From contig JAPEHQ010000002.1 in NCBI GenBank assembly GCA_027405735.1, forward strand, positions 682,001 through 746,000: a stretch of 64,000 nucleotides of DNA, given 5' to 3'. Below are positions 2,274 through 47,279 of the stretch, one piece after another. A program made the position numbers and the translations under genes. Position 1 is the first letter of the stretch. Each line of letters opens with the position of its first letter. A model generated the notes under the pieces. That model was given only the letters and a program-made list of their open reading frames with translations. It was not told the origin of the DNA and did no database searches. This DNA comes from Mucor racemosus (Eukaryota; Mucoromycota; Mucoromycetes; Mucorales; Mucoraceae).

Positions 2274-2600
2274 ATTAAATAAAATAAATAAACGTAATTT
2301 TTATTCAAATTGATGGTACTCTTCTACTGCAAATATATACCGTATATATAGGTATCATAGATGTGTTTTACCGTTAAATAAACAAGCAAAACTGCTGTAG
2401 TCGACGAATTGTTAATCTAGCATTGTGTTTTAAATGATCAAATAATTCTACGAAGGGAGATACTATAGATATCACACAATTTCCCTACTATAATCTTATA
2501 GTTAAAGTTGATCATCTTTTTCTTCATGAAATTTGACTACAAATTAACAAACCAACGGTATTTATGATTGTAAGGAATAACATCGACTACTTGTTACTGA
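2274..2600. other. Intergenic, SAM50 3' flank
   Basis: This is AT-rich sequence downstream of SAM50. AATAAA-like motifs lie just after the stop (near 2276-2290). I see no gene or recognisable repeat before similarity to the repeat arms begins near 2600. Confidence 0.5.
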
Positions 2601-2916
2601 AAATAATATGTGCAAATCTCACGAAAGACCTAAAAACACATGAAGTTCATTGTTTTTCTCTGCAAAACTGGGTTTAACTTTTCATCCCTGCACAACTTTT
2701 TTCCCACTTAATAACACTAAGAAAAAATTATATGTCAATGTACCTGAGATGTTCAACTTTAATTCAAAACCAAGTATCCGGGAATATCCTATTTTTTACA
2801 GTTGATACAACGTTTTCAGTGCTAATGTTTTAGAGTTTTACGCGTACTTCACTGCTAAAAACTAAAAACTTTGAGGTTTCATATCTCTGCAAAACATTAA
2901 GCTATACTAGCACTTT

Positions 2917-3207
2917 CTAATAATAAAACTTACTTGTTTTAAAGCACTTTATAACATATTTCAGTGTAAAAAAATTTAGAGCACTTTTATTCTTTTTTCC
3001 ATTTTTTGACATTTTTGTAATGGATTTTAAAATATTGGTTAAATTGAGCAATGCTTTTTTTACATTCATGTTATCCAGTTCGTTGATCTCTCTCGGACTG
3101 AATTTAGTTTGTTTCAAAATATTGATTTTTCGTGGAGATATTCTCAAAAATGTGTATAAAGAGGTACTTCCGTTTCTAGATTCAATTTTCCCCTTGTATA
3201 CCCTCAT
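2917..3207 (-). pseudogene. Unknown arm-encoded protein fragment (diverged, frame-interrupted copy)
   Basis: A 96-codon open frame carries the core LYTFLRISPRKINILKQTK followed by PREINELDNMNVKK. It matches the frame in the right arm (23,468-23,881), and at lower quality the third copy (59.76-60.04 kb, reverse strand), where a stop interrupts it. The upstream part of the right-arm frame is present here too, but shifted by one base at a T-run (8 versus 9 T), so this copy is broken. I do not recognise the family. Conservation of the same core in three diverged copies suggests it once encoded protein. Confidence 0.3.
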
Positions 3208-3937
3208 CCAAAATTCTGAAATTGAAAAAAAATTGACAAAAACCTTGTTTCCTCTACGAAAAATGCAGCTAGAAGCTTTAACAATAGCTCGATCGATAGA
3301 TAATTTTGTTGCACATCATTACTATAAACTATTTTAAAAACATGTTTATAAAAAGTGATGCGTATCTTCAAAAAACGTCCAAACTTTCAATGGCATTTTG
3401 TGCAAAATTTAATGTGAATCATTTGTTTGAACTTAATCTAGCTGAATGCAGAATCTAAAACTGTACCAAAACTATTTAATAAGCTATGTCAACTTACTTT
3501 GCAGTTCAGGAGCCATTAAACAATTTTGTTTTTTTCATCATTTTCTGATCGATTTGTCAGATCGATTTTGAAGCCCAGTTACCATAGGGTTAAGCTGTAA
3601 TGTAAACTATTATTTTGATTATCTCGACAAAAAATCAATATTTTTCGCTGAAACAAAAAATGCAAAGTAGCCTAGAGTTGGATCTATCTGGTGAATACTG
3701 TATAAAAAATCAATACTATAATTTAGATGCTCATGTTTTTATAATCGATTTTAGGTAAAATGGAAAACCTTTGTTTCTTGAACGGATTAATCTACTAATA
3801 ATTTGCAGTAAATAGTCAGCACATTTTATGCAACATTGTCTACCGGATGATTTTTAAATCTTCAAAAAATATTAATTTTTCATGGAGTTATTGATAAATT
3901 AAGATTTCATGATGAATAATTGATTTGATGCAAACTT

Positions 3938-4186
3938 GTGATGTACAAAAAATTTGTATTTGTGAAACCGTTTGAGGGGAAAATGTTTTGTTTAAAACCG
4001 TATATCGATTCAAAATTGAATGCGCTACAAAAAACATTTAATGATCAGGTGACGGTAGCTATACAGTTTTTTGTCAAATATTGGAAAGGTTTCCTAATCT
4101 CTAGTATTTTGCACATTTACGGCTTAAAACTAGACTGCAGCTTAAAGCGTGCAATTTCATTTAAAGTCCGAGAGGGTCAAATATGA
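3938..4186 (+). CDS. Hypothetical 82-aa open frame in left arm
   Basis: The frame starts with tandem Met codons and encodes a basic, hydrophobic-rich peptide (a run around ISSILHIYGLKL near residue 55). An identical copy is at 22,653-22,901 on the other strand. I see no domain. Identity between the arms reflects recent homogenisation and not selection, so coding status is doubtful. Confidence 0.15.
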   Translation: MMYKKFVFVKPFEGKMFCLKPYIDSKLNALQKTFNDQVTVAIQFFVKYWKGFLISSILHIYGLKLDCSLKRAISFKVREGQI

Positions 4187-4865
4187 AACAAGGCAATAAA
4201 TTTTTTTTTTCGAGATTTTGATAGAACGATATGATTGGCCGATTTATAGCCCAGAAAATCTGACGCTCTTTCAAATTCCAAGCAATATTAGTGGCTCCCG
4301 TCATTTGAATCATTTTTTGAAGATGTTTTTGATGCTATATTTGTCATTACTCCATGAAAAATGCAGCTACAATTAAGAAAAAAGTTGGAAATGAAAACGC
4401 CGCATTTGGCGTACATTACAGTATCCAAAAAACAGAAATGCAAATGCTTTAATGTTTCGTTTTGGATTGATTAAAATCATCAGTCATTTAGTCAATTTTT
4501 ATGGATTTGGAGATAATGTATCACTACTTGATCAAAATTGTAGCTAGCATCCAGCAAAATAATACAAATAAACAAAAAAAAATGTTCTGCATTCTGTATT
4601 TTCAAAAATAAAGACCTACAAGAGTCTTCGTGTTTTTTTTTTTAATTAATAAAAATGATCATTAATCAAGCTGATTTTTAATGATTTTTGTATAATCTAT
4701 CGTTACTCCACCAAAAATGAGCTTACGATTAACCAATCAAGCAGAATAACGTAAATAAAGCTGTAAATTTGCATGAAATTGAGGCATTCAGAAATACAGC
4801 TTGAAAAAAGACATAATGCTATTTACTCGAGCTTTCAGAATAACCGATCTTTTGGCTAGGATTGT

Positions 4866-4925
4866 TGTCGAACCCAGCATATACGAGTAAATTCTGCTGG
4901 CAAAACCCGGCTCAATACCAATGCT
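4866..4925 (-). repeat. Short GC-rich hairpin repeat, copy 1
   Basis: This is one of four copies of a ~52-60 bp dispersed motif (others near 16.19, 21.93 and 50.73 kb). The complete form has stems TGTCGAGCC and GGCTCGACA around a loop containing AAATTTACT. Here one stem is altered (TGTCGAACC), and the motif is mirrored in the right arm. Confidence 0.6.
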
Positions 4926-5220
4926 ACATTTGACAAATTTAGCATTTTTCTGGCTATTTCAAATGCCAAAAGCTTTTGATATGTCAAACATCTAACAGTT
5001 ATAAATTCAAAAACCATTATTAGAATCCGATGTCGATCATTAAAATCCAACATGAGATAACATTTAGTAGCTAATATTAAATGCCATACCGAACCATCAA
5101 TATATCAGTATTAATAACAAATATGAATAAACAAAACCATAATAAACAACAACAAAACAAAGACAATCCCAACATTTAAAACAGATGTATATCAAATCAC
5201 TAATTACCCCAATCTTATGT

Positions 5221-5612
5221 ATTAAATACTATATAATAATCTCTCCGGAAGCCAATCTAACTCGGAGATAGCTGGTATTCAGCAAAGTATATTTTGGTAT
5301 GCTGTCCTTCGTTGATGTATCATTCTTAACCAGAAGATGTCAAATCCAAAAGCAAAACAATAGTTCAGGAACCAAAATCCAAGTCAAGGGAACCACAGTT
5401 CCAGCATAGTGGTCCAGCATGATATTAAAGCATAATGTTCCATCATCATCATATCGCGTTAGTATAATAGATAACACCTATAATCCTTATCACATCATCT
5501 CCTCCCTCAATTCATCAATTAATATATAAACCCTCTTTATTTCCTTTTAATAAACGACATCTCTTTACTTGATTAAATTTTCTAGTTTTATTTAATATTA
5601 ACATATTCTGAT
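5221..5612 (+). mobile_element. Candidate solo LTR in left arm (ends not proven)
   Basis: A TATATAAACCCTC box near 5,524 is followed by AATAAACGAC and then a ...AATATTAACA end. This is the same promoter-to-polyA spacing as in the delimited LTRs of this window. A related box and polyA arrangement occurs in reverse at ~11.14-11.18 kb. I could not find a matching target-site duplication or an empty-site copy, so the limits are approximate. A mirrored identical copy lies at 21,227-21,618. Confidence 0.35.
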
Positions 5613-5841
5613 AAATTATTCGTATCTGTAAACTGGTACCAAATCCATATTTATACCCTCAACATATAGTATCTTTATAATTATTAACATAATAATCATA
5701 TTATAATCATTTAGAGAACATATAAATAGAAAACATCAATAAATTAATAAAATGTATTTTTTAGCAGAGTATCTTTTATTATAGCATTTTCTGATATAAT
5801 CAGCGGCAGGCACTTCTAAATTCTAGTGTCGATTCACAGAA

Positions 5842-6174
5842 TTACAAAAGATTTAACCTCTCCGAGTTGCTGCGGAAATGTGTAAATAAAAATTCATACT
5901 TGTTTAAGCTACTTTGCATGTATTGTTTTGGATACTCTTTGAAGTTTTTTATAAAATCAAATAATGTTTTGAAATTGAATTTTGAAATTGCACTTAGTGC
6001 ACAGTAAATGTAAGAAGAGTATATCTTTATTTCATTATCCAATTGCTCTTTTTGAAGGATTTTTGGGCATGTTTTTTGGGGAAAAAAGCCTTTTCTTCTG
6101 TTTGAAAGAAATTTAATCACTGGAAAGACGCTAGAAATCAATGAATATTGATCTAAATAGGCTGCGAGTTTCAA
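5842..6174 (-). CDS. Hypothetical 110-aa open frame in left arm
   Basis: The open frame extends upstream of its first Met-like codon for about 21 further residues (WDAKIISLLDNIISTAVVYI), so it may be an exon of a longer element gene. The composition is Lys/Phe/Ser-rich with no recognised domain. An identical copy is at 20,665-20,997. The third arm copy resumes just past this frame, at 61.41 kb, and lacks it. Confidence 0.25.
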   Translation of the reverse strand: MKLAAYLDQYSLISSVFPVIKFLSNRRKGFFPQKTCPKILQKEQLDNEIKIYSSYIYCALSAISKFNFKTLFDFIKNFKEYPKQYMQSSLNKYEFLFTHFRSNSERLNLL

Positions 6175-7127
6175 AATATATACTACAGCTGTAGAAATAA
6201 TGTTATCCAGCAGTGATATAATTTTAGCATCCCATTTATTTGCTAGTTAAATCAAAGAAATCAAGCGCCCACTTTTTCCTAGTTGGTTTTATGGATTAGT
6301 GGACCATTTTAAAATTAGAAATAACGAATAACAATAAATCAACCAAAATCAGCATATATGACATATGACAATGTCAACTACCGAAATTAATAAGCAAACG
6401 TTCTCTTCATGTATAATCGAAGTTGTAGCGCAGTGTGTTCTGCATTCATTTTTTCCAAAAAAGAATCATGCTTCAAATATTAATTTAAATAACTATAAGC
6501 AAATAAATAAGTATTAAAAAAGTATGGATATGTAAGTAAAACTTTTATAAACTATTGATACATGCGTATTTATTGATAGGTAAACCTTTGGGATCATATT
6601 TCTTCTATTATAAAAATAAACTGTCTTTTAAATGTTTGCAGTTATATTTTGGATCGAATTGGTGGTTATTATGGTTATAATTGTGTGCTTCTAAATTGGA
6701 ATTATATTGAAGGTGTATTGTTTGAAGTTTAGAGGCAATTGATTCACTGTAATTATTGAATCCACTGGTATTTAACCTCATTAAGAATGTAAATTAGCTG
6801 ATTATCTATATAATGAGTAATAAAAAAATAAAAAGACAATAGTAAGTATAAATATAAAAAAATTGACGTTAAGTTCATTTTGTGGGGACCATCATTAAGA
6901 GTGACAAAATTCATCAAAATACAGATACTAACACATTTGATTATACCGTAAAAGTAGAAGAAGTAAAAGTAGAGCAAGTAACGTTTTATTGCATTGCTTA
7001 CTGATACAGTAAATGTAGTTTAAGACTAGAAAAACTGTCTATTATATCATACATTCATTGAAAAAAATTGGAAAATTTAGCCCGCAGAGCGACGCCATAG
7101 TTGAGCGTAACCGTAGCGAGATCGAAC

Positions 7128-7559
7128 TGTGGAACAGGTAGAGATATTCACGGAAAAAAAGTATAAAAAAACAATAGGAATTCGACTAGATAACGTTAGG
7201 CTTTTATTATCAAGTAGAACTTAATTGACTCTTCTTTGAAAGGAAGATGTCCTTCTATTTATACACAATTTCTAATCTATATTATAAATCAATGAGAACA
7301 AATAGGAACATGCCATTTCCATAATCTACCCGATATCTTTAGGTCCTGATTTTATCATGAATGAAATCAGGCCATATTGAATAATGGTGTATTTATGATT
7401 CAGGTCAATAATTATAATTTGCTAGGATCCACATCTCGGTTATAAGATTATTTGCTGTATCAATCAGACATGTCAAATCAAAGTGATTCCTGATTTATCC
7501 CAGCGGTAATTCAAGTTAGACACCAGATGAAATGGAGATCTAAATGGATGTAGTCCACA
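7128..7559 (-). mobile_element. Solo LTR, 432 bp, with target duplication CGAAC
   Basis: The ends are TGTGGA and TCCACA (perfect 6-bp inverted termini of TG...CA type). The element is flanked by CGAAC at 7,123-7,127 and 7,560-7,564. The right arm (19,712-19,716) and the third arm copy (near 62,470) both show the uninterrupted site GATCGAACGGCTAG, which proves insertion. On the minus strand a TATAAATAG box is followed by AATAAAAGCC, giving the transcriptional orientation. It inserted after the two arms became identical. Confidence 0.9.
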
Positions 7560-7594
7560 CGAACGGCTAGGTGTCTTTTATGCTATATGATATA

Positions 7595-8127
7595 TCGAAG
7601 TTTTAAATAAAAAAGTTTCTTTTTTCAATTTTTCTTATACTTTACCATGTCTGGTCTGAAAATTCAGTTTTTGTAGCGGACATTTTCGGGGCTCATTTTA
7701 TCCTTACCAACACTCATGATTTTGATCAAAAAACAGAAAAATCAATTTTTGATACCAAAATCAACGTTTAAATATACTATATTGTGAGAGAAAATTGTAG
7801 CCATAGCTAATACACATTTTATAAAAGCTTAATATTAAATGTTAAATAATGAAACTTTGTACTTTTGGCCCAAAAACGGGTTTTTGGTTAAAGGATTTTC
7901 ATGTAATATTTTGCAATAAAAAGGTTTGTTATTTTTTATTGAGAAAATAGAGTGCTAAATTCTGTATATGTGTATATTTTTTGTTTTTATAATTAGTAAT
8001 ATAATTAACTCTAAATCTTCAAAATCAGAATTTTTTTTTGAAAAATGTCAAAATTGATGATCTGGACAAGAATAATTTTTTAAATTAATATTCCGCTTAT
8101 AAGCCTTGTAAGTCTTAAAAATAAGAG
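7595..8127 (+). repeat. ~535-bp arm-inner repeat, copy R1
   Basis: The segment contains CATGTCTGGTCTGAAAATTC and ends before AAGAGATTT. Related copies are at ~10,128-10,665, ~13,178-13,712 and 19,149-19,680 (reverse), and ~45,699-46,236 and ~62,508-63,043 (forward). All copies are non-coding in every frame that I checked. Confidence 0.8.
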
Positions 8128-8132
8128 ATTTC

Positions 8133-8388
8133 TGTAATGTCCGAGATATTATGTTATTTAGAATAAAGAATAATTGTTTATTGATTGATTATTTACTCGC
8201 TATTTATACTATTATGTTAATTGACTACGGATACATGGTTGTTAATCATGTACCAATAGATTACTTCTAGAAGGTGTCTATGCCTTGGTCTTGCTACGCA
8301 TGCTTACCAAGCAACCTTCTCGTAGATTCTAGCAGTGTCTCTAGCATTAATGATTGGTTCACTTTCCGAAGGCCTTGGAGCCACTACA
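8133..8388 (-). mobile_element. Solo LTR, 256 bp, with target duplication ATTTC
   Basis: The ends are TGTAATG and CACTACA, flanked by ATTTC at 8,128-8,132 and 8,389-8,393. Copies at ~46,236 and ~63,043 read AGATTTTATAATACTTG straight through, so they are empty sites. The minus strand carries TATAAATAG and then AATAAACAATT. The same insertion is in the right arm (17,836-19,143), so it predates the arm duplication or homogenisation. Confidence 0.85.
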
Positions 8389-8489
8389 ATTTCATAATAC
8401 TTGTGAACTTTTTCACGGATTTACGATGCTGTACCCACTTGATTCAAGCTTATTACTGTAAATCGTTATACATAGTAGGTATATTAACT

Positions 8490-8605
8490 ACATATAATTG
8501 AAGAACGGTCAAGTAACAATTGATGTTGTCCGGCAAGAGGCACAAAATCTGTCCGGAACACAATAATTGTGCCTGGCTTTGTTTCTTCGATTTCACCTGT
8601 CAGAA
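8490..8605 (-). pseudogene. Short unrecognised coding-like remnant
   Basis: The minus strand reads an uninterrupted stretch with PGTIIVFRTDFVPLAGQ in its centre, ending at TAG near 8,490. Its composition is protein-like and unlike the surrounding AT-rich repeats. It is too short to assign. A possible splice acceptor (TCTGACAG) precedes it. Confidence 0.25.
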
Positions 8606-8689
8606 ATACCTAATAATAGTAATAAAATATAGACATTATTATAGTATAAATAAATTAAAAAGTTTTTTCTACTTCTTGCAATAATAACA

Positions 8690-9355
8690 ATGAAAATAAA
8701 AACTACAAATTCTGTTAGTGAAAGTTCATCTTCCTCTTCATCTTCGATTTCTTTTTTTAGCACAACTAGATCATCTACTAGGTCATCTCTTCTTCAAAAT
8801 GCTACAGAAAACGAGCCCGAAAACGAGATAGACAACGATAAATACCTCGATACAGAATTCGAGACAGAAGATCAGGCTGAAATCAATCTTCGAAACAAAA
8901 ATGATCCCCAAGCTGTGAAACAAGATGTTGTTACGACAAATGATAATCATACACCTAAGAATACTAAAAATAATTATGCTTCTAGACCAAAAAAATTTAA
9001 GGTAAATATCATGCGCATTATTATTACAAGGTATGCAATTGAGAAACGTCGTTCCTTCATGCGAATTTTATACATTTCCAAACGATACAATATATAGAAA
9101 TGGTGTAAGGAGGTTCGCAAATTTGAGGATGGTTCTTACGTTGATGAAGAAAAGCTTTTGCTCTGGCTCAAGCATGTCAGTGAGATCGGCAATAAATTTA
9201 GTGATAATCCTCTTTCTTTGGAATCGATTAAGATGCATACCAAGGCTCTTATCAATCTTTGGGAGCATCAGAAGCTCCTCATTGTACTAATTCCTATTAA
9301 ATTGCATGATTTGATACGCAAAAAACTCTTAAAGCATTCATTCTTTTTTTTTTAG
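8690..9355 (+). pseudogene. N-terminal half of an Ndc10/Crypton-like tyrosine recombinase gene
   Basis: Exon 8,690-9,001 encodes a Ser-rich, then acidic, N-terminus. It is followed by a GT-AG intron (9,002-9,097) and an exon beginning KWCKEVRKFEDGSYVDEEKL and running to LINLWEHQK near 9,276. That pattern (a W-C pair, a K-L-L-x-W/F-L segment, then an S-x-K-x-x-x-x-A-L-x-x-L-x-x-x-Q helix) is the SAM-like N-terminal DNA-binding part seen in fungal Ndc10/GCR1-type and Crypton recombinases. After residue ~165 similarity stops and the frame runs into repeat sequence. The catalytic half lies 2.4 kb downstream on the same strand (11,686-12,790), separated by a D repeat copy and LTR-like sequence, so the two are probably halves of one disrupted gene. 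Confidence 0.45.
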
Positions 9356-9359
9356 CAGT

Positions 9360-10973
9360 ACTACAAATCATCGTTTAATATGACTGAATATTAATGAATT
9401 AGAGAAAATACAACTGATACCCAATGTGCATCGAGGTCAAGGTTGCTAAAAGGTGCATTCATTGTGTTGTAGTGGAAATTGCAAAAACATTCTGATAGAT
9501 AGAAACTACAGGAGGACCAAGGTGTTGTATTTGCCTCAGGATTTATATAAGAGTTTAAATTGCATACTTCATCAAACTTACTTAGATGTTAAATACTCAC
9601 CATGTGTTATTAGTATCACCTTGTTTTTTAGTTAATTGCTGTATTATTAAAAACCAAACTTTTCATAGCTTATAACAATGACAATGGGATATTTCTGATT
9701 TTAAATTGGCATTCATCATGAGGCAGGCTAATGATACGTTTGATATTACTGTAGATGGAACCAGCCAATTTAATTTATGGAATTTGAATGCAAATACCGA
9801 GAAACCATTTGTAAGTACTACTGAAGTTGCCTCTGGTAAAGCATTGAATAAATAGGCTTGGGATAAAAAGAGTAAAAAGGTGGTAATACTGTAGGTTCTT
9901 CCAGTGATGATGGCCAAGTTTATGTTTATTATGGTTTATGATATTGGAGAAGTAAGACTAAAGCTCAATGTAAATCACCTCTAGCGCATTAATTATAAAG
10001 TAATACTATATCATCATCAAATAAACTACCACACAATATTAACATGTATAAAGATTTACAGTAATAAGCTTGAATCAAGTGGGTACAACATCGTAAATTC
10101 TTGAAAAAGTTCACAAGTAGTTTAAAATCTCTTATTTTTAAGACTTACAAGGCTTATAAGCGGAATATTAATTTCGAAAATTATTCTTGTCCAGATCATC
10201 AATTTTGACATTTTTTAATTTTTTTTTTCTGATTTTTCAAATCAAGAGTTAATTATACTACCAATTATAAAAAAAAAAAATATACACATATACAGAATTT
10301 AGCGCTCTATTTGCTCAATAAAAAATAATAAATATTTTTATTGCAAAATATTACATGAAAATCCTTTAATCAAAAACCCGTTTTTGGGCCAAAAGTACAA
10401 AGTTTCATTATTTAACATTTAATATTGAACCTTTATGGAATGTGTATTAATTATGGCTACAATTTTCTCTCACAATGTAGTATATTTAAACATTGATTTT
10501 GGTATCAAAAATTGATTTTTCTGTTTTTTGATCAAAATCATGAGTGTTGGTAAGGATAAAATGAGCCCCCAAAATGTCCGCTACAAAAACTGAATTTTCA
10601 GACCAGACATGGTTAAATATAAAAAAAGTTAAAAAAAAAGAGATGCTTTTTTATTTAAAACTTAGGTATTCCATACTATAAGAAACTTACCGATTCGATC
10701 TTACTATGCTCAATTACGGTATCGCTCTATGGGCTCGTTTTTGCAATTTTTTAGTGAATGTATGATATGATACACGGGGTTTCTGTTAAAAAAAATGTAT
10801 GTTTCGATGATAACAGATATTGCTTATTTTGTTTAATCTATGGTTCATGCGTTGTGATGCTGCTTTTACATTGGCTGAAATGTGCAATTTAGCAGGGTTT
10901 TAATTGCGCTAAATAATGTAAACCCTTGTAAATCCTTTTCTCCGTGTGTTGTTTCTTTTTGTTTTCATATTCC
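9360..10973 (+). repeat. D repeat, copy 1
   Basis: The copy starts near ATCGTTTAATATGACTG. It runs through a dynein-intermediate-chain-like remnant (9,722-9,950) into the ~535-bp repeat in reverse (10,128-10,665) and then ~300 bp ending at TTTTCATATTCC. The segment 9,911-10,973 is repeated directly at 12,938-14,023, with high identity through most of it. The two direct copies bracket the recombinase C-terminal half. Confidence 0.75.
9722..9950 (+). pseudogene. Dynein intermediate chain-like WD40 remnant (copy 1)
   Basis: The frame reads VDGTSQFNLWNLNANTEKPF, then KALNK-stop-AWDKKSKK, then (after frame changes) GQVYV and YDIGE before a GTAAGA splice-donor-like end. The order VDGxxxxxLWNLNxxTExP, ALNKxxW, GxVxVYDxGE matches the last WD40 repeats of cytoplasmic dynein intermediate chain. 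An internal stop and at least one frame change make it non-functional. Of the five copies this one keeps the best reading frame across the middle of the segment. Confidence 0.55.
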
Positions 10974-11054
10974 AAAAATTGCTCTGAAACGAAAAAAAAC
11001 AGAGGGAGAAATTTGTTCATTGTTTGTTTATTTACTTTCCTCCCCCCTCATGAT

Positions 11055-11610
11055 TATCTCATTTAGTATAAATAGCGTCTTCCTCATTGATTTATCGAAA
11101 GGTAAATCGTATAAAATTAATCAAATGAAAAAGTACCGTTTTATTATGAGCTTCTAGAGGGGGTTTATATACTAATTGAATGAGTGTATTAAATGTGAGT
11201 TATAATATAATTAGAATGAGCATTTGGATATTATGTGGATATATTGGAATCGTGCTTCTATGATTCAATAGTAGCATGATGATAGACGCATGGAATATGA
11301 CCTTGCTTGACTTGCATGTTGAACATCATGTTTTGACGGATGTTCTAAATTGGTAATTCGGTAATTCCTAATTCTGATAGATCACTCATGCCGCAATGAT
11401 TGCTATTTATCTGTTCAAAGATTAAAAAGTGTCATTGCAGTTGCAATTATTAGAATAGAAACAGGTCAATCAAACTCAATCATCCAATTCAACTTTCAAA
11501 ATACAATACTATATTCAATTGTCTCCCAATTCAATTTAAATATCAAATAACTCAAAATCTCCCAGCAAATATTTTATCCCCGTAACATTTGGTGCGGCTA
11601 ACGTGGATGA
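11055..11610. mobile_element. LTR-like sequence with possible primer-binding site
   Basis: On the minus strand, TGTTACGGGG starts at 11,588 and a TATATAAACCCCCTC box (~11,173) is followed by AATAAAACGG (~11,140), as in the other LTRs here. Alternatively, on the plus strand, an LTR end CCCCGTAACA is followed two bases later by TGGTGCGGCTAACGTGG, which looks like a Ty3/gypsy primer-binding site, and then an ATG. No target duplication or partner LTR was found, so orientation and limits are unresolved. Confidence 0.35.
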
Positions 11611-11685
11611 ATCCAGCTCATTCAATAACAACAGTGGAGAAAGCAGCAATTTAGCATACAGCCTGAGAAGACAAACCCCACCATC

Positions 11686-12790: not shown

Positions 12791-12937
12791 GACACCATGC
12801 CAATCATTGAGCAACGTCTCAACGAGGTTCTTTTTGCTCCACTTTAGATCCTCTTCAAAATTTAAAATTTATAAAATCAGCTCTGTTTGAGGACAACTCT
12901 ATCTTGCTGCGCTTGATTATTATTGTCTCCACTCTCT

Positions 12938-14023: not shown

Positions 14024-14760
14024 GTGATATATTCACCGTTTGATAAGGCATATCAGACGATCAAGCTGGTATTATTTTGATTTATCTGAAGACGCATTCT
14101 AACAACATAAGAAACTAATGTTTTCAATATAAGTAGCAGTCTATATTAAAGACTGATATTTTTATTTAAACTCATTTTAAGATCAAATATCATCGTTTAC
14201 TACTGCATTGTTGAACGTATTTCTTGATTAACCAGATCCAATCGAAGGCAATGATATTTATAATATCTAATCAATGAGAAGCTAGAATTGTCTACAAACC
14301 CATGAAATGCTCCAGAAAAGTGATAAAATTTCAAATGATATAGAAACAAAAAAAAAAAGAATAACTTAATGTCTTGCCTAATAACTATAGTTTTGATCGT
14401 AGCTATAGTTGAAAACAAATCTTTTTACAGCTGACAATTGTAAACCAAAATAGTAAGTTTAAAGAAGGTTAATTTGTTTAAATTTTATAAGTGATAAAGT
14501 AACATATATCATCTTAGATTTGGCTTGCATATAAGTTTAAGCAGTAAGTGTTATTTAATTTCGTGTTCAAGCAAAAACCATTGTTTCTGTAAACATTATA
14601 GCTATAAACTTATTTACAAATGATGATAATCGTAAATATATTGGTTCTTGCATGTATTGCTCTACATCAACACCGTATTGAATTGTATTATTGTCTATAA
14701 TCTATATTAAATAAAAGCAAACGTAATTTAAAAACCCATTCCAGTAAAAAATGAAATGAA
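14024..14760. other. Unassigned AT-rich sequence
   Basis: I see no gene, terminal repeats or similarity to other parts of the window. Small open frames here have no protein-like features. Confidence 0.4.
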
Positions 14761-14774
14761 ATTTTGAGAACGGC

Positions 14775-15005
14775 ACAATGCTCATGTACAAACAAATTTG
14801 TGCCCATACAATCAGCTCATTATGCTCATGGTCAGATTTTATTTTTATGCACAAATAGGAATAATTATACGGTTATGGGCAATTCTACTATTATGCACAC
14901 ATAGGATTAATGTCATGCACACGGACAGAATCTATAATTCTACACATACAGGCTTTCTGTTATGCTCGTGTGCAGTTTCTTTTGTTGTGCCCATGTGCAT
15001 CTTGT
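14775..15005. repeat. Degenerate short-motif array around TATGCnCA
   Basis: About ten variants of a 12-14 bp motif occur at intervals of 18-28 bp. Examples are ATGCTCATG, TGTGCCCATAC, TATGCTCATGG, TATGCACAAATAGG, TATGGGCA, TATGCACACATAGG, ATGCACACGGACAG, TACACATACAGG, TATGCTCGTGTGCAG and TTGTGCCCATGTGCAT. The spacers are unrelated AT-rich sequence. An old tandem array or a cluster of binding sites would both fit. Confidence 0.4.
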
Positions 15006-15479
15006 TATCTTCTTTTTAGCCATTATTTAGTGGGCGCAGCAGACTCATCAGACTATAGTGTGCAGCACAGGTCGGCCGCAGTGCTTTTATATATAAAACC
15101 TTTAAATTTGTGATTTTATAGACTTTTTTTGAATCCGGTTGTATCATATTATACTTTTCAAGTTAAATCCGTTATTAGACTAATAACGTTGTTGTAGGTT
15201 GTATTTATGCTTTACTTAAAATAAGCCTTTGAATAATTAATAGTAATACAGTCGAATCTTAATTTTTGTATGAAATTTCGAAATCTGCATCTTATAGCTG
15301 CTTGGAATATTTAAACAACCGCGTCCGGGCTCCCCGGTGATTTGTTTTAGAAATTTAAAGCTTGGAAATATTATTAGATGGCCGCTTCCGGAGATTGTTC
15401 GGCTTTTTTTGGAAGAATAACCATTGGAAAAAATATGAATCATATACTATGTTGCAATGCACCAACTACCATATGTTAT

Positions 15480-15905
15480 CACCTTCTACAGTATCAATAC
15501 ACCTTACAATCTATTGACTACGACATGTATTCAAGTGCAAAGCCGTGATATCGGATATAAGAAACTCCTAGTGTTGTACTAAGTTTAATCCAGTAATTAC
15601 CAAGAACGCTTAGACCTCAATTACGACACCATATTCTTTCATCCGAGCGGTTAATCAATCAAGTAGCTATCAAATCAACATCCAATCACAATCAGCGCAG
15701 CATTAAAACAAGAAAACTCACAAGCTCTGCAAGCACGGTTAAATTATGATTGATCCATTTCAATCCATAGATTACTATCAAACAGATCTAATGGTTCAAT
15801 AATGCCTTAAATTACATCTCAGGATCTCAATGTCAAATCAATAATATAAAAAGCCATACTTTTATATCTAAATAAACGATACTGTATCTTGTTTTTATTA
15901 TACAG
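15480..15905 (+). mobile_element. Possible LTR remnant
   Basis: An AATATAAAAAGCC box near 15,845 is followed by AATAAACGATAC and a TTTTTATTATACA end at ~15,905. This is the promoter, polyA and CA-end arrangement shared by LTRs in this window. No start with a matching 5-bp duplication could be found. Confidence 0.25.
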
Positions 15906-16182
15906 TTGAATAACTAATTAATTACTCATTCTCTTTTATTGTATTCTTATTTAAGTATTATTCATCAAACCTGAAAGTATACAACAAGGCTAAACCTTTT
16001 GCAATTATGCGGATCAGCGCTTGTAGAAGTACTTGCCATTGCAACGGGAGGTCATTTGGATTATTATTCATATTCGATAAAAAGAACCGGTAGGCTTGTT
16101 GATCTTAATAGGTGTACGTAGCAGGTAACCGAATTGTTGCTCGAACTGGCTGAACGTACAATGACCCATGGATGCTGGTAGT

Positions 16183-16230
16183 ATTGGTGTCAAGCCGGGT
16201 TTTGCCAGCCAAATTTACTAGTATACCTAT
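16183..16230 (+). repeat. Short GC-rich hairpin repeat, copy 2 (truncated)
   Basis: The sequence GTGTCAAGCCGGGTTTTGCC continues to AAATTTACTAGTATA and then loses the second stem. The GC-rich left stem is clear against the AT-rich surroundings. Confidence 0.5.
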
Positions 16231-16387
16231 CATATGTCATATGTATTAATGAAAAAGGAAAAAATTTGCTAGACATATGCAAAACTTACTAATTAAGATA
16301 AAAAAAGGAGGGTCATATTCGATGAGAAGCAAAGTCATCGGAGATTCTCTTTCAAAATTCATATCCTAATACCAAAGGGCTTCCCCT

Positions 16388-16466
16388 TTGGCGGGTTTGA
16401 ACTCACGAATATGTGTGTCGCACTCAATTTGTAGCGCATGCGCTACCCGTTAAGCTTGTCACTCTC
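16388..16466 (-). repeat. tRNA-like / SINE-like Pol III promoter unit
   Basis: On the minus strand TAGCGCATGCG fits the Pol III A-box consensus (TRGYNNANNNG). GTTCAAACC, ~35 nt further, fits the B box (GWTCRANNC). The whole does not fold as a tRNA: the T-stem does not pair and the anticodon loop would have 8 nt. It may be a tRNA-derived SINE head or a dead tRNA. The A box lies in a perfect 16-bp palindrome (16,431-16,446). Confidence 0.3.
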
Positions 16467-16879
16467 CTTTGGTCTACAATTTTAATCCCCATACATGTGA
16501 ACATGCATTTATCAGTTTCTCACTATTTTGAGAAATGTAGCAAATTAATTTTTATTTTTTCTTTTTGGAAATGATACTAGAGTTTTCCAGAAATTAGTAG
16601 CAGACTTTATCTGGAAAGAATTTCAATTTTTGATGGAGATATAAACCAAACTCAATGTTAGTACATTAACATTAAGCTGTATAACACAAAAATTGAATAT
16701 GGACGAATGTAAAGCAATGTTTGCCAAAATGGGAGTTAGTATAACATGAGCTACAGCGCATAGAAACTCAAGTGATATTCAACAAATGAAGTTGCATTAG
16801 ACAATTCAGTTTTTAGGAGTAGAAACACCTACTAGAATTATACTGGAAAACCAAAGTACGCATTATTCATCAAACTAAA

Positions 16880-17835
16880 GACAGACACAAACTTCCAATC
16901 TACCAGTGTTAAATGCAGATATCAATTGTATAATCTCTACCAATGCGAAATAGTAATATGATATACTATATGAATCAATCAGTTTGACAATTATAATTAA
17001 TGGTAATAATAATAATAATAATAATAGGATCAAGTTTTTAAAGTAATAACAAAAGACTACCAACATTATACTCGTAAATTGTAATTTAACACACTATCGT
17101 TCAATATAGCTGAATATTAATGAATCAGGGAAAATGTAACCGGTGAAAAACTGATGCCCAATGTACATCTACTAGCTCAAGATTGATAAAAGATCATTCA
17201 CTGTGTAGTGGAAACCCTAACATTTGATGGATAGAAATTACAGGTCCAAGGTGTTGAGTTTGCCTCAGGATTTTTATTAAAAGGGTTTAGAAGCATACTT
17301 TATCAAACTTAGATGTTAAATACTCACCATATGTTATTAGTATCATTTTGGTTTTTATTTGGCCGTATTATTAAAAATCAAGCTTTTTATGTAGCTTATA
17401 ACAATTACAATGGGATGTTTCTAATTTTAGATTGACATTTATCATAAGGCGCGCTGATGATACGTTTGGTACTATTGTAGATGGAACCAGTCAATTTAAT
17501 TTATGGAATTTGTTGAATTCAAATACGGAGGAACCATTTGTAGGTACTTCAGTTGGTTTTCTAGTAAAGCATTGAATAAATTGGCTTGGGACAAAGAGGA
17601 TAAAAAGACGGCAATAGGTTTTAGTGATGGCTATGTTTATGCTTATGACATTGAAAACGTAAGATTAAAGCTCAATGTAAATTACCTCTAGCTCAATAAT
17701 TATAAGGTAAAACTATATTATCATCAAATAAACTACCACACAATATTAATATGTATAACGATTTACAGTAATAAGCTTAAATCAAGTGGGTACAGCATGG
17801 TAAATCCTTGAAAAAGTTCACAAGTATTATGAAAT
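16880..17835 (+). repeat. D repeat, copy 3, contiguous with the right arm
   Basis: The copy begins near CACAAACTTCCAATCTACC, a sequence that also closes the window at ~63,975-64,000 in reverse. It passes a (TAA)n microsatellite at ~17,008-17,028, carries a dynein-intermediate-chain-like remnant, and then runs directly into the right arm via a nested LTR. This shows that D repeat and arm belong to one longer repeat unit. Confidence 0.7.
17452..17661 (+). pseudogene. Dynein intermediate chain-like WD40 remnant (copy 3)
   Basis: The frame reads VDGTSQFNLWNL with NTEEPF, then after a frameshift SSKALNKLAWDKEDKKTAIG and FSDGYVYAYDIEN, followed by GTAAGA. It has the same motif order as copy 1, with an independent set of lesions. 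The WD-repeat ending GYVYAYDI is well kept. Confidence 0.55.
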
Positions 17836-19143
17836 TGTAGTAGCTCCAAGACCTTCGGAAAGTGAACCAATCATTAATGCTAGAGACACTGCTAGAATCT
17901 ACGAGAAGGTTGCTTGGTAAGCATGCGTAGCAAGGCCAAGGCATAGATACCTTCTAGAAGTAATCTATTGGTACATGATTAGCAACCATGTATCCTTAGT
18001 CAATTAACACAATAGTATAAATAGTGAGTAAATAATCAATCTGTTTAGGATATTGACTAAATATTGAGCTGGATTATGTAAGACTAATAATGAGCGCAGA
18101 ATGTATGGTTCATCGTAAGTTCTTAATATGTTATCTGGACATGATCATTATAGTTAGGAACTGGAAGGAATGATACATATCAACTTTATCTCAATTATGA
18201 AATAAGGTGGAGTGATTTTATTATATATTATATTTAGTCTAAGATGAGGTGATATTATTGAAGCTGAGCCAATGGAAATCGTTACCGACGATTCACATTG
18301 GTTTGTTCTGTTATAAAGAATATTCTATCTACTTAGCTTTGCATCCTCCTTGCCGGATGATCTGATTCTGGTCATATCTATTTACATCAAAACCTCATAC
18401 AACTGGTCTGAAGTGAATTAAGCTAGATTCCCATCATAAAATACCTAAATTAAATGTCATCTCATTTGAAACCATGCTATCAAAGATAAGACTATATAGT
18501 AAATAGACAATTGCATAAAGATAGCAAGGGTATAATATTCAAATAAGAGATGCTAAAATACTAAAGTAATGTGGGATATCCTAAATAAAAGATACAAAAA
18601 GTACATGCTTATCAAGTAGAACAAGTAAGGGCTGTTCTGAAAGCATGATTGACAAACTATATTTAAAACACCGTTCTTGATCCACCAAATCAATAACCCA
18701 ACAACCCAACATTTATACTCAAAATTAATGGAATCGTTGACAATTGCAATGCAATTGCAAGATAGTAAATAATCACCAAATAATATAAATAGAGACGTAG
18801 AATAACCATTTTATTGCACATTATCCATATTTTAATGAAGAAGGATTTTAACAGTATTCTTTATCGCTTTTTACATCCATATTTTACTGCATGGTCTCCC
18901 AACTTATGAAATCAAGATTCAACTATCGAATGTTATACCCTATATCCGCGCTCCTAAAACATATAAATACCTGATCTTTTTTATACTCATAGCTTGACAT
19001 CTTCATCTTTTTTCTTATACATATACTTAATAAATATATCTAGTTCTAATTGTACTTTAGCTGATTATCTTAAGTATATATATAAACACAATCAATAAAC
19101 AATTATTCTTTATTCTAAATAACATAATATCTCGGACATTACA
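17836..19143 (+). mobile_element. 256-bp solo LTR (right-arm copy), interrupted by a nested LTR
   Basis: This is the reverse complement of the left-arm 256-bp LTR. It is flanked by GAAAT at 17,831-17,835 and 19,144-19,148. Subtracting the nested element and its duplicated 5 bp (1,052 bp) leaves exactly 256 bp. Confidence 0.85.
18042..19088 (+). mobile_element. Nested solo LTR, 1,047 bp, with target duplication CAATC
   Basis: The ends are TGTTTA and TAAACA (perfect inverted termini), flanked by CAATC at 18,037-18,041 and 19,089-19,093. The left arm shows the empty site TAATCAATCAATAAAC. A CATATAAATACC box (~18,958) and AATAAATATATC (~19,030) give plus-strand orientation. The length suits a Ty3/gypsy or Ty1/copia LTR; no internal region remains. 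Confidence 0.9.
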
Positions 19144-20664
19144 GAAATCTCTTATTTTTAAGACTTACAAGGCTTATAAGCGGAATATTAATTTAAAAAA
19201 TTATTCTTGTCCAGATCATCAATTTTGACATTTTTCAAAAAAAAATTCTGATTTTGAAGATTTAGAGTTAATTATATTACTAATTATAAAAACAAAAAAT
19301 ATACACATATACAGAATTTAGCACTCTATTTTCTCAATAAAAAATAACAAACCTTTTTATTGCAAAATATTACATGAAAATCCTTTAACCAAAAACCCGT
19401 TTTTGGGCCAAAAGTACAAAGTTTCATTATTTAACATTTAATATTAAGCTTTTATAAAATGTGTATTAGCTATGGCTACAATTTTCTCTCACAATATAGT
19501 ATATTTAAACGTTGATTTTGGTATCAAAAATTGATTTTTCTGTTTTTTGATCAAAATCATGAGTGTTGGTAAGGATAAAATGAGCCCCGAAAATGTCCGC
19601 TACAAAAACTGAATTTTCAGACCAGACATGGTAAAGTATAAGAAAAATTGAAAAAAGAAACTTTTTTATTTAAAACTTCGATATATCATATAGCATAAAA
19701 GACACCTAGCCGTTCGATCTCGCTACGGTTACGCTCAACTATGGCGTCGCTCTGCGGGCTAAATTTTCCAATTTTTTTCAATGAATGTATGATATAATAG
19801 ACAGTTTTTCTAGTCTTAAACTACATTTACTGTATCAGTAAGCAATGCAATAAAACGTTACTTGCTCTACTTTTACTTCTTCTACTTTTACGGTATAATC
19901 AAATGTGTTAGTATCTGTATTTTGATGAATTTTGTCACTCTTAATGATGGTCCCCACAAAATGAACTTAACGTCAATTTTTTTATATTTATACTTACTAT
20001 TGTCTTTTTATTTTTTTATTACTCATTATATAGATAATCAGCTAATTTACATTCTTAATGAGGTTAAATACCAGTGGATTCAATAATTACAGTGAATCAA
20101 TTGCCTCTAAACTTCAAACAATACACCTTCAATATAATTCCAATTTAGAAGCACACAATTATAACCATAATAACCACCAATTCGATCCAAAATATAACTG
20201 CAAACATTTAAAAGACAGTTTATTTTTATAATAGAAGAAATATGATCCCAAAGGTTTACCTATCAATAAATACGCATGTATCAATAGTTTATAAAAGTTT
20301 TACTTACATATCCATACTTTTTTAATACTTATTTATTTGCTTATAGTTATTTAAATTAATATTTGAAGCATGATTCTTTTTTGGAAAAAATGAATGCAGA
20401 ACACACTGCGCTACAACTTCGATTATACATGAAGAGAACGTTTGCTTATTAATTTCGGTAGTTGACATTGTCATATGTCATATATGCTGATTTTGGTTGA
20501 TTTATTGTTATTCGTTATTTCTAATTTTAAAATGGTCCACTAATCCATAAAACCAACTAGGAAAAAGTGGGCGCTTGATTTCTTTGATTTAACTAGCAAA
20601 TAAATGGGATGCTAAAATTATATCACTGCTGGATAACATTATTTCTACAGCTGTAGTATATATT

Positions 20665-20997
20665 TTGAAACTCGCAGCCTATTTAGATCAATATTCATTG
20701 ATTTCTAGCGTCTTTCCAGTGATTAAATTTCTTTCAAACAGAAGAAAAGGCTTTTTTCCCCAAAAAACATGCCCAAAAATCCTTCAAAAAGAGCAATTGG
20801 ATAATGAAATAAAGATATACTCTTCTTACATTTACTGTGCACTAAGTGCAATTTCAAAATTCAATTTCAAAACATTATTTGATTTTATAAAAAACTTCAA
20901 AGAGTATCCAAAACAATACATGCAAAGTAGCTTAAACAAGTATGAATTTTTATTTACACATTTCCGCAGCAACTCGGAGAGGTTAAATCTTTTGTAA
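20665..20997 (+). CDS. Hypothetical 110-aa open frame in right arm
   Basis: The frame is identical to the minus-strand one at 5,842-6,174 and opens ~21 codons earlier. It is Lys/Phe-rich with no recognised domain. It is a possible exon of an unknown element-encoded protein. Confidence 0.25.
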   Translation: MKLAAYLDQYSLISSVFPVIKFLSNRRKGFFPQKTCPKILQKEQLDNEIKIYSSYIYCALSAISKFNFKTLFDFIKNFKEYPKQYMQSSLNKYEFLFTHFRSNSERLNLL

Positions 20998-21226
20998 TTC
21001 TGTGAATCGACACTAGAATTTAGAAGTGCCTGCCGCTGATTATATCAGAAAATGCTATAATAAAAGATACTCTGCTAAAAAATACATTTTATTAATTTAT
21101 TGATGTTTTCTATTTATATGTTCTCTAAATGATTATAATATAATTATTATGTTAATAATTATAAAGATACTATATGTTGAGGGTATAAATATGGATTTGG
21201 TACCAGTTTACAGATACGAATAATTT

Positions 21227-21618
21227 ATCAGAATATGTTAATATTAAATAAAACTAGAAAATTTAATCAAGTAAAGAGATGTCGTTTATTAAAAGGAAAT
21301 AAAGAGGGTTTATATATTAATTGATGAATTGAGGGAGGAGATGATGTGATAAGGATTATAGGTGTTATCTATTATACTAACGCGATATGATGATGATGGA
21401 ACATTATGCTTTAATATCATGCTGGACCACTATGCTGGAACTGTGGTTCCCTTGACTTGGATTTTGGTTCCTGAACTATTGTTTTGCTTTTGGATTTGAC
21501 ATCTTCTGGTTAAGAATGATACATCAACGAAGGACAGCATACCAAAATATACTTTGCTGAATACCAGCTATCTCCGAGTTAGATTGGCTTCCGGAGAGAT
21601 TATTATATAGTATTTAAT
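21227..21618 (-). mobile_element. Candidate solo LTR in right arm (mirror of 5,221-5,612)
   Basis: The sequence is the same as the left-arm candidate, with the TATATAAACC box and AATAAACG now on the minus strand. The limits are approximate for the same reason. Confidence 0.35.
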
Positions 21619-21913
21619 ACATAAGATTGGGGTAATTAGTGATTTGATATACATCTGTTTTAAATGTTGGGATTGTCTTTGTTTTGTTGTTGTTTATTAT
21701 GGTTTTGTTTATTCATATTTGTTATTAATACTGATATATTGATGGTTCGGTATGGCATTTAATATTAGCTACTAAATGTTATCTCATGTTGGATTTTAAT
21801 GATCGACATCGGATTCTAATAATGGTTTTTGAATTTATAACTGTTAGATGTTTGACATATCAAAAGCTTTTGGCATTTGAAATAGCCAGAAAAATGCTAA
21901 ATTTGTCAAATGT

Positions 21914-21974
21914 AGCATTGGTATTGAGCCGGGTTTTGCCAGCAGAATTTACTCGTATATGCTGGGTTCGACAA
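21914..21974 (+). repeat. Short GC-rich hairpin repeat, copy 3
   Basis: This is the mirror of the left-arm copy: GAGCCGGGTTTTGCCAGC, then AATTTACTCGTATATGCTGG and GTTCGACA. Confidence 0.6.
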
Positions 21975-22652
21975 CAATCCTAGCCAAAAGATCGGTTATT
22001 CTGAAAGCTCGAGTAAATAGCATTATGTCTTTTTTCAAGCTGTATTTCTGAATGCCTCAATTTCATGCAAATTTACAGCTTTATTTACGTTATTCTGCTT
22101 GATTGGTTAATCGTAAGCTCATTTTTGGTGGAGTAACGATAGATTATACAAAAATCATTAAAAATCAGCTTGATTAATGATCATTTTTATTAATTAAAAA
22201 AAAAAACACGAAGACTCTTGTAGGTCTTTATTTTTGAAAATACAGAATGCAGAACATTTTTTTTTGTTTATTTGTATTATTTTGCTGGATGCTAGCTACA
22301 ATTTTGATCAAGTAGTGATACATTATCTCCAAATCCATAAAAATTGACTAAATGACTGATGATTTTAATCAATCCAAAACGAAACATTAAAGCATTTGCA
22401 TTTCTGTTTTTTGGATACTGTAATGTACGCCAAATGCGGCGTTTTCATTTCCAACTTTTTTCTTAATTGTAGCTGCATTTTTCATGGAGTAATGACAAAT
22501 ATAGCATCAAAAACATCTTCAAAAAATGATTCAAATGACGGGAGCCACTAATATTGCTTGGAATTTGAAAGAGCGTCAGATTTTCTGGGCTATAAATCGG
22601 CCAATCATATCGTTCTATCAAAATCTCGAAAAAAAAAATTTATTGCCTTGTT

Positions 22653-22901
22653 TCATATTTGACCCTCTCGGACTTTAAATGAAATTGCACGCTTTAAGCT
22701 GCAGTCTAGTTTTAAGCCGTAAATGTGCAAAATACTAGAGATTAGGAAACCTTTCCAATATTTGACAAAAAACTGTATAGCTACCGTCACCTGATCATTA
22801 AATGTTTTTTGTAGCGCATTCAATTTTGAATCGATATACGGTTTTAAACAAAACATTTTCCCCTCAAACGGTTTCACAAATACAAATTTTTTGTACATCA
22901 C
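22653..22901 (-). CDS. Hypothetical 82-aa open frame in right arm
   Basis: The frame is identical to the left-arm one at 3,938-4,186. It has no recognised domain, and coding status is doubtful. Confidence 0.15.
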   Translation of the reverse strand: MMYKKFVFVKPFEGKMFCLKPYIDSKLNALQKTFNDQVTVAIQFFVKYWKGFLISSILHIYGLKLDCSLKRAISFKVREGQI

Positions 22902-23467
22902 AAGTTTGCATCAAATCAATTATTCATCATGAAATCTTAATTTATCAATAACTCCATGAAAAATTAATATTTTTTGAAGATTTAAAAATCATCCGGTAGA
23001 CAATGTTGCATAAAATGTGCTGACTATTTACTGCAAATTATTAGTAGATTAATCCGTTCAAGAAACAAAGGTTTTCCATTTTACCTAAAATCGATTATAA
23101 AAACATGAGCATCTAAATTATAGTATTGATTTTTTATACAGTATTCACCAGATAGATCCAACTCTAGGCTACTTTGCATTTTTTGTTTCAGCGAAAAATA
23201 TTGATTTTTTGTCGAGATAATCAAAATAATAGTTTACATTACAGCTTAACCCTATGGTAACTGGGCTTCAAAATCGATCTGACAAATCGACCAGAAAATG
23301 ATGAAAAAAACAAAATTGTTTAATGGTTCCTGAACTGCAAAGTAAGTTGACATAGCTTATTAAATAGTTTTGGTACAGTTTTAGATTCTGCATTCAGCTA
23401 GATTAAGTTCAAACAAATGATTCACATTAAATTTTGCACAAAATGCCATTGAAATTTTGGACGTTTT

Positions 23468-23881
23468 TTGAAGATACGCATCACTTTTTATAAACATGTT
23501 CTCAAAATAGTTTATAGTAATGATGTGCAACAAAATTATCTATCGATCGAGCTATTGTTAAAGCTTCTAGCTGCATTTTTCGTAGAGGAAACAAGATTTT
23601 TGTCAATTTTTTTTTCAAATTCAGAATTTTGGATGAGGGTATACAAGGAGAAAATGGAGGCTAGAAACAAAGATATCTCTTTATACACATTTTTGGGGAT
23701 ATCTCCACGAAAAATCAATATTTTAAAACAAACTAAATTAGATCCGAGAGAGATCAAAGAGGTCAATGACATGAATGCAAAAAAAATGTTGCTCAATTTA
23801 ACCAATATTTTAAAACCTACTATAGAAATGCCAAAAAAAAAAATGAAAAAAATAAAGGTGCTCAGAAATTTTTTATATTAA
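23468..23881 (+). CDS. Unknown arm-encoded protein, 137 aa (least damaged copy)
   Basis: The frame is open from Met at 23,468. Its core is SLYTFLGISPRKINILKQTK, then DPREIKEVNDMNAKK and LLNLTNILKP, with a Lys-rich C-terminus. Diverged homologous frames exist at 2,917-3,207 and in the third arm copy. The arm is not identical in this outer part, so conservation of the frame is informative. I do not recognise the family. Confidence 0.35.
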   Translation: MKIRITFYKHVLKIVYSNDVQQNYLSIELLLKLLAAFFVEETRFLSIFFSNSEFWMRVYKEKMEARNKDISLYTFLGISPRKINILKQTKLDPREIKEVNDMNAKKMLLNLTNILKPTIEMPKKKMKKIKVLRNFLY

Positions 23882-24253
23882 AATATGTTTTAGAGCACTT
23901 CAAAACAAGTAAGTTTTATTATTAAAAAATGTTCGTATAGCTTAATTTTTCGCAGACCTATGAAGGCCCAAAGCTTTTGATTTTAACAGTGAATAAGCAG
24001 TAAACATCTGAAACATTAGCACTGAAAAATTAATACCAACTGCAAAGAATACGATACTTCCGGATAAACTTTTTTAGATTAAAGGTGAACATTTCAGGTA
24101 CATTGACATATAATTTGTTCTTGGTGTTATTTAGTGCAAAAAAAAGTAGAGCAGGGATGAAAAGTGAGACCCAGTTTCTAAGGAAAATGCAGTAAATTGC
24201 ATCTGTTTTTGAGTTTTTCGTGAGATATAAAATAAATTTAGGAACAGGTATTA

Positions 24254-47145: not shown

Positions 47146-47279
47146 TTTAGATGCACAAATCTACATCAAAGTGAAGACTATGCTAACGAGTTTGTTTCCC
47201 GTTATGGTGCAAAATCTGGCCCTCCCTTTCCTCCTCTTCTTGGCATATAAAGACAGAAGACTACTACCAAATTTCATCC

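What the first reader, a model, noticed from the sequence alone, without database searches (positions are those of the whole stretch)
2600..24253. 21-kb palindromic repeat island with an identity cliff between its arms
The two arms are collinear without net indels over at least 4.8 kb of core, and identical wherever compared. They are ~4% different immediately inside (8,184-8,388) and much more diverged outside (2,640-3,300). A simple old transposon with terminal inverted repeats would diverge evenly. A recent gene-conversion tract or break-induced inverted duplication explains a sharp-edged identical core better. The inner edge coincides exactly with the insertion point of the 1,047-bp LTR in the right arm, as expected if heterology stopped strand exchange.
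Basis: partly seen in the sequence, partly recalled or inferred. Interest (0 to 1): 0.75.

Follow-up and report, generated by a model that had tools for sequence, protein, structure and literature searches.

The report
Inverted repeats homogenised by gene conversion
Two mirror-image blocks of old mobile-element DNA in a Mucor-like fungus share a nearly identical 5-kb stretch with sharp edges, best explained by one copy having been overwritten by the other, and some other neighbouring mirror-image copies in the same genome look similar.

Summary
Arms 2616-8477 and 24226-17747 (inverted) differ by 20% at 2616-3191, 2.2% at 3192-3548, 1 event in about 4.2 kb at 3549-8187 and 4.1% at 8188-8477; then homology ends. 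The inner edge lies within 12 bp of the right-arm insertion, which is an LTR (18042-19088) with a 483-bp solo LTR nested in it.

Homology continues in register at higher divergence on both sides of the identical tract, so recent, probably repeated, arm-to-arm gene conversion between existing inverted copies explains it best. The left arm looks like the recipient: its outer end is 94% like a copy 16 kb upstream, and the likeness stops at the tract edge.

It is not unique. A second palindrome starts at 59432 (3.45 kb without a difference). The 8 measured inverted neighbours of this family (of 13 listed) are 97-100% identical, the 3 measured direct ones (of 7) 86.7-94%; the sample is partly selected. 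A long-TIR transposon born identical remains the main rival, above all for other pairs. No reads or sister strain were available. New member of a known kind.

The parts
2616..8477 (+). left arm of the palindrome
   Evidence: in-register inverted homology to 24226-17747
17747..24226 (-). right arm of the palindrome (the family sequence continues outwards to about 24360)
2616..3191 (+). outer diverged zone, left arm (mate 24226-23649): 116 events in 576 bp; 94% like C2:667932
3192..3548 (+). intermediate zone, 8 events in 357 bp, read as the margin of an older conversion
3549..8187 (+). nearly identical core, left arm (1 event; left-only LTR 7128-7559 inside it)
19089..23290 (-). nearly identical core, right arm
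8188..8477 (+). inner diverged zone, 12 differences in 290 bp (mate 18036-17747)
7128..7559 (+). 432-bp solo LTR in left arm only, TSD CGAAC at 7123-7127 and 7560-7564; its first 427 bases score the same as copies on C7 and C5, so young
18042..19088 (+). LTR-type insertion in right arm at the inner tract edge, TSD CAATC, about 559 bp without its nested insert
18409..18891 (+). 483-bp solo LTR nested in the previous one, TSD TGGTC; about 99% identical to many genome copies
8133..8388 (+). 256-bp solo LTR, TSD ATTTC, at the same site in both arms; right-arm copy at 17836-18041 and 19089-19143, split by the insertion
8478..12836 (+). spacer: crypton-like (NDC10_II) gene remains interrupted by repeats at about 9278-11654; the NDC10_II ORF is 11875-12708
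12935..17746 (+). spacer: repeat-family modules shared with many loci
59432..63494 (+). left arm of a second palindrome (mate C2:748309-752369, outside the window): 86/538 outer, 0/3450 core, 6/75 inner

Best explanation
The island is two inverted copies of a composite repeat block in a Mucor-like genome that were recently made identical over about 5 kb by homologous copying from one arm to the other (gene conversion, for example synthesis-dependent strand annealing). Shown: the zoned divergence, in-register homology beyond both tract edges, and the mosaic left arm. Inferred: the right arm was donor and the left arm recipient at least for the outer edge; an older tract (edge about 3192-3224) was followed by a newer one (edge after 3548); and the inner end of the tract was set by the LTR already present in the right arm. 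The left-arm 432-bp LTR landed later.
For: Zoned rates 20% / 2.2% / 0.02% / 4.1% with collinear homology across the outer edge and, apart from the right-arm LTR, across the inner edge of the tract. The left outer zone is 94% like C2:667932, but that likeness falls to about 65-83% inside the tract, while the right arm keeps about 85-94% likeness to L013 on both sides of the edge. The next best match to the left outer zone among the 40 scored copies is 85%, so a recent import of the outer zone from elsewhere is not seen. Two copies on other contigs score the same as the left-only LTR over the 427 bases queried, as expected if it came after the conversion. The LTR nested in the right-arm insertion is about 1% off its family, as expected if that insertion came before. 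A second palindrome 35 kb away shows 0 differences in 3450 bp with diverged in-register flanks. Long matches to the arm elsewhere are 81-92% (40 of 6642 candidates scored); pieces shared with the second palindrome reach 95.9%.
Against: Only one assembly, no reads and no sister strain. The first 75 bp of the left arm (2616-2690) match neither the right arm nor C2:667932 well, so the left outer zone has its own mosaic history. Direction of the newer event is unknown; the 7 substitution sites at 3192-3599 do not favour either arm as the older state. The 256-bp LTR at the same site in both arms cannot serve as evidence of common descent, because that family sits at this site in other loci too. Likeness between direct copies also exists: 94% for C6:900218 and, by eye, a run of about 217 identical bases between the left arm and C2:667932, so homogenisation is not strictly between inverted copies.
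Confidence: 0.77

Rival explanations
1. A recent insertion of one long-TIR DNA transposon whose arms were identical at birth; the outer and inner zones were later overwritten by other copies.
For: Of the 8 measured near-identical neighbour pairs 7 lie + then - (A ends outward, pointing in), as TIR ends would. C3:2576402/2589582 and C6:915691/929543 are about 99-100% identical without a long diverged homologous zone like that of this island.
Against: The left outer zone has no recent donor among the 40 scored copies; the best is 94% with mismatches on both sides of an identical run, which does not fit an overwrite younger than a 0.02% tract. No target-site duplication or conserved end motif was recognised by eye at the A ends. 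No ATG ORF of 120 aa or more lies in the arms; degenerate transposase was not sought.
Confidence: 0.12
2. A recent inverted duplication by break-induced replication or fold-back template switching made the second arm.
For: At C8:819606-824972 the A sequence continues past the left arm but unrelated sequence follows the right arm, the form expected for a fold-back copy. Fold-back and BIR at inverted repeats are reported in yeast (PMC6103520, PMC10164571; abstracts and outlines seen).
Against: For this island the sequence beyond the core is still homologous and in register on both sides, at 20% (or 2.2%) and 4%.
Confidence: 0.07
3. Assembly or polishing artefact: one arm duplicated, or both arms given one consensus.
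Against: Arms keep a left-only LTR, a right-only nested LTR, 20% outer and 4% inner differences; a second island and several other loci show similar sharp edges.
Confidence: 0.04

Closest known systems
Primate Y-chromosome palindromes (e.g. human P6; PMC3723533, abstract and outline seen)
   Same: Inverted arms, near-total arm identity, multi-kilobase conversion tracts, repeated events.
   Different: Here the arms are repeat debris of a fungus, not part of a sex chromosome; the homologous flanks are 4-20% diverged, so single tract edges are visible; rates and inversions could not be measured.
Foldback / Galileo-type long-TIR transposons (recalled; Tetris, PMC4079207, seen only as a search listing)
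   Same: Long inverted ends that differ between copies more than within a copy.
   Different: No end motif, target-site duplication or transposase recognised here; the outer ends are the diverged part in this island.
Inverted-repeat fold-back and BIR in yeast (PMC6103520, PMC10164571; abstracts and outlines seen)
   Same: Widely spaced, diverged inverted repeats can interact in cis.
   Different: Those assays score rearrangements (PMC10164571 in a mutant with long single-stranded DNA), whereas this island shows copying between arms with flanks kept.

Membership tests
Gene-converting palindrome | Inverted arms nearly identical over kilobases | tested here: met
   1 event in about 4.2 kb
Gene-converting palindrome | Identity well above that of other copies of the same family | tested here: met
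   Long matches elsewhere 81-92% (40 of 6642 candidates scored); pieces shared with the second palindrome up to 95.9%; A-module medians 81-88% over the loci held, self matches included
Gene-converting palindrome | Tract edges inside homologous sequence | tested here: met
   In-register homology at 20% then 2.2% outside and 4% inside
Gene-converting palindrome | Mosaic arm showing donor and recipient | tested here: met
   Left arm against C2:667932 and L013; the first 75 bp do not fit
Gene-converting palindrome | Conversion seen between individuals or strains; spacer inversions | not testable with these tools
   No sister strain or reads held
Long-TIR DNA transposon | Defined terminus with target-site duplication | tested here: inconclusive
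   Ends fade near a TTCAAAAT stretch, no duplication recognised by eye
Long-TIR DNA transposon | Transposase, own or in relatives | tested here: inconclusive
   No ORF of 120 aa or more in the arms; a crypton-like NDC10_II fragment in the spacer; degenerate sequence not searched further
Long-TIR DNA transposon | Even divergence of the two ends since insertion | tested here: not met
   Zoned rates, likelihood ratio 505 with zones chosen afterwards
LTR solo insertion (18042-19088) | TG...CA ends and 5-bp duplication | tested here: met
   CAATC on both sides, nested LTR with TGGTC

The most novel reading that the evidence does not exclude
In this Mucor-like genome, neighbouring inverted copies of one repeat family are systematically kept or made identical by arm-to-arm conversion far more than direct and dispersed copies are: an orientation-dependent concerted evolution of transposon debris, with tract edges that recur at one conserved position of the repeat (3191-3224 in island 1, equivalent to 3222 in island 2).
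Probability: 0.3. Interest if true: 0.62.

Novelty: new member of a known kind. Interest (0 to 1): 0.42.

Why it matters
The diverged homologous flanks make single conversion tracts readable base by base, with a set of nested LTR insertions around them that orders the events. If the orientation bias holds genome-wide, it would give an early-diverging fungus as a model for how inverted repeats evolve outside sex chromosomes, and a warning that identity between transposon arms does not date their insertion.

Tried and rejected
Even-age palindrome: rejected by zoned rates. Import of the left outer zone from another copy after a birth-identical insertion: searched genome-wide with 2480-3191; the best of 40 scored copies (of 2989 candidates) is 94%. 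Use of the shared 256-bp LTR as proof that the arms descend from one duplication: dropped, since the family lies at this same repeat site in 13 of 20 loci by my hand count of the listing (the two arms included; the query carried the flanks, which favours such loci). tRNA (bacterial settings) and Rfam scans of the window: 0 matches. A fragment resembling dynein intermediate chain in the repeats: weak only (E 0.075 to that chain; better E-values went to designed proteins). Terminus and target-site duplication of the A module: not resolved. Literature: seven searches listed no paper on arm-to-arm conversion of nuclear transposon palindromes in Mucor; only the listed rows and starts of abstracts were read there. 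An eighth search added nothing used.
Full report
ORGANISM. The window is eukaryotic, on contig 2 of a 53.2-Mb, 54-contig assembly. Its Omp85-domain gene (1329-2273) is 94-95% identical to proteins of Mucor fragilis, M. lusitanicus, M. velutinosus and others, with one unnamed metagenome protein at 98%, so I call it a Mucor-like fungus; no call names the species. Neighbouring genes include a dynein heavy chain in three ORFs (27150-40109, minus strand), a kinesin fragment and a family-17 glycosyltransferase.

OBSERVATION. Self-BLAST finds 2616-7127 against 24226-19712 at 97.4%, then 7560-8187 against 19716-19089 at 100%, then 8183-8477 against 18041-17747 at 95.9%. Counting one event per difference or gap, the zones are 116/576, 8/357, 1/3574, 0/628 and 12/290 (events at 7120-7127, where the pieces were cut, were dropped). 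The left arm alone has a 432-bp insert at 7128-7559 flanked by CGAAC. The right arm alone has 18042-19088 flanked by CAATC, and this contains 18409-18891 flanked by TGGTC. All have TG...CA ends; I read them as LTRs. For the nested one the genome search listed eight same-orientation pairs about 5.88 kb apart, the layout of whole LTR elements.

ORDER OF EVENTS (inferred). The nested LTR is about 99% identical to its family, whose other members are mostly 99.6-100% alike, while the core differs by 1 event in about 4.2 kb, so the right-arm insertion most likely precedes the conversion. The left-arm LTR lies inside the tract and copies on C7 and C5 score the same as it over the 427 bases queried, so it most likely follows. 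The tract ends between 8187 and 8199, next to the right-arm insertion, as expected if heterology stopped strand exchange. The 2.2% zone next to the 0.02% zone suggests two events.

DIRECTION. The outer left zone is 93-100% like a direct copy at C2:667932 from about 2700 to 3190, and 65-83% like it inside the tract. The right arm stays at 85-94% to L013 on both sides of the edge. Of the sites that differ between the arms at 2690-3099, the left arm agrees with the C2:667932 copy at 75 of 83 (38 of 45 plus 37 of 38); at 3100-3191 at 10 of 13; at 2616-2689 at only 6 of 17, so this outermost part has another history (gap sites not counted). At the 7 sites of 3192-3599 neither arm is favoured (3 and 3). 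A search with 2480-3191 found that copy at 94% and the other scored copies at 85% or less. Hence the left arm is probably the recipient.

SECOND PALINDROME. Window 59432-63494 matches the reverse complement of C2:748309-752369 at 97.7%. Zones: 86/538, 0/3450, 6/75. Its outer edge maps to position 3222 of island 1, whose own outer step lies at 3191-3224. Of the 30-bp bins printed the one at 3210 is the best conserved (the alignment includes the paired arms, so this is slightly biased). Two islands are too few to claim a hotspot.

OTHER LOCI. L051 (C2:327500-334000) has 98.5% arms; L053 (C8) 99.9% and L054 (C26) 99.8%; L055 (C1) 99.9%. All four were fetched because listings already showed inverted neighbours; only L052, the continuation of the window, was not. 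In an all-against-all comparison of the loci then held (at least 95% and 400 bp, the 80 longest rows printed), the long pairs above 96% outside LTR families were local and inverted. Other rows: a direct pair C2:1097066/1103118 (734 bp, 99.7%), which I take to be an LTR pair without testing it; 95.8-95.9% matches between the two islands in both orientations; a 529-bp match between C5 and C9 at 97.4%, which lies in the solo-LTR-like module 15450-15987; and many LTR rows on different contigs. Two C7 pairs are 96.6% and 97.2%.

NEIGHBOUR PAIRS OF THE A MODULE. From the listings plus the second palindrome I compiled 110 copies; 20 adjacent pairs lie within 25 kb, 13 inverted (9 + then -, 4 - then +) and 7 direct. 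Measured inverted, 8 of 13: island 1 97.4%, island 2 97.7%, C2:327753 98.5%, C9:680475 99.4% and C7:1617610 97.2%, C6:915691 listed 100%, C3:2032809 98%, C3:2576402 listed 100%. Measured direct, 3 of 7: C8:1544892 88%, C2:667932 86.7%, C6:900218 94%. The sample is partly selected: searches were run because an inverted neighbour was already seen. Of four copies queried without that knowledge, one had a near-identical inverted partner and three had none. The unmeasured inverted pair C1:4233319/4247293 scores 87% and 81% to the same query over different ranges and is probably not homogenised. An inverted copy 31 kb away (C6:883377) is 93% to the query. Later listings hold further copies and neighbours, inverted and direct, that are not in the 110 and were not measured. 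In the window, short inverted matches such as 7598-8131 against 10663-10125 are only 91.7%. So the rule is not absolute.

EDGES ELSEWHERE. Outer edges differ (by eye): the C6:915691 and C3:2020565 pairs appear to pass into diverged A sequence, C3:2576402 is near-identical almost to the end of the recognisable family sequence, C9 and C7 pass into unrelated flanks near the start of A. C8:819606 ends on unrelated sequence on one side. Conversion explains the first kind best; the others also fit an identical birth or a fold-back copy.

MECHANISM AND PLACE. Arm-to-arm conversion with tracts of 2068 bp on average and above 9 kb at most is reported for human palindrome P6 (PMC3723533, abstract). In a yeast mutant with long single-stranded DNA, inverted repeats 30 kb apart interact, and only heterology beyond 25% suppresses this (PMC10164571, abstract), so the present geometry is within known limits. 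What I add is a case in repeat debris of a Mucor-like fungus in which tract edges lie in diverged homology. This is a new member of a known kind.

LIMITS. One assembly, no reads, no sister strain, identity of several pairs taken from search listings (rounded) rather than from alignments, and a genome search that scores at most 40 candidates per query.

Noticed in passing
window 59432-63494 (mate C2:748309-752369): A second palindrome with 3450 bp free of differences and diverged in-register flanks.
   Followed up: yes
window 8133-8388 and other loci: A young 256-bp LTR family lies at one and the same site of another repeat in 13 of 20 loci by hand count of the listing (6 in the same, 7 in the opposite orientation; the query carried the flanks, which favours such loci): it looks like an LTR retrotransposon with a preferred target site.
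   Followed up: partly
window 8478-12836: A crypton-like (NDC10_II) gene is interrupted by about 2.4 kb of repeats; three loci, two on C5 and one on C8, have the two parts side by side.
   Followed up: partly
window 9370-10119, 16888-17835, 46233-47149, 63039-64000: Related repeats, one of which carries a degenerate stretch resembling the end of dynein intermediate chain (17572-17664; weak, E 0.075), near a dynein heavy chain gene.
   Followed up: partly
window about 5090-5679: A stretch present in both arms for which the genome search listed no other copy (40 candidates scored), so conversion may also have carried otherwise unique sequence.
   Followed up: no
C8:819606-824972 (L053): Arms 99.9% identical; A sequence continues past the left arm while unrelated sequence follows the right arm, more like a fold-back duplication than conversion.
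   Followed up: partly
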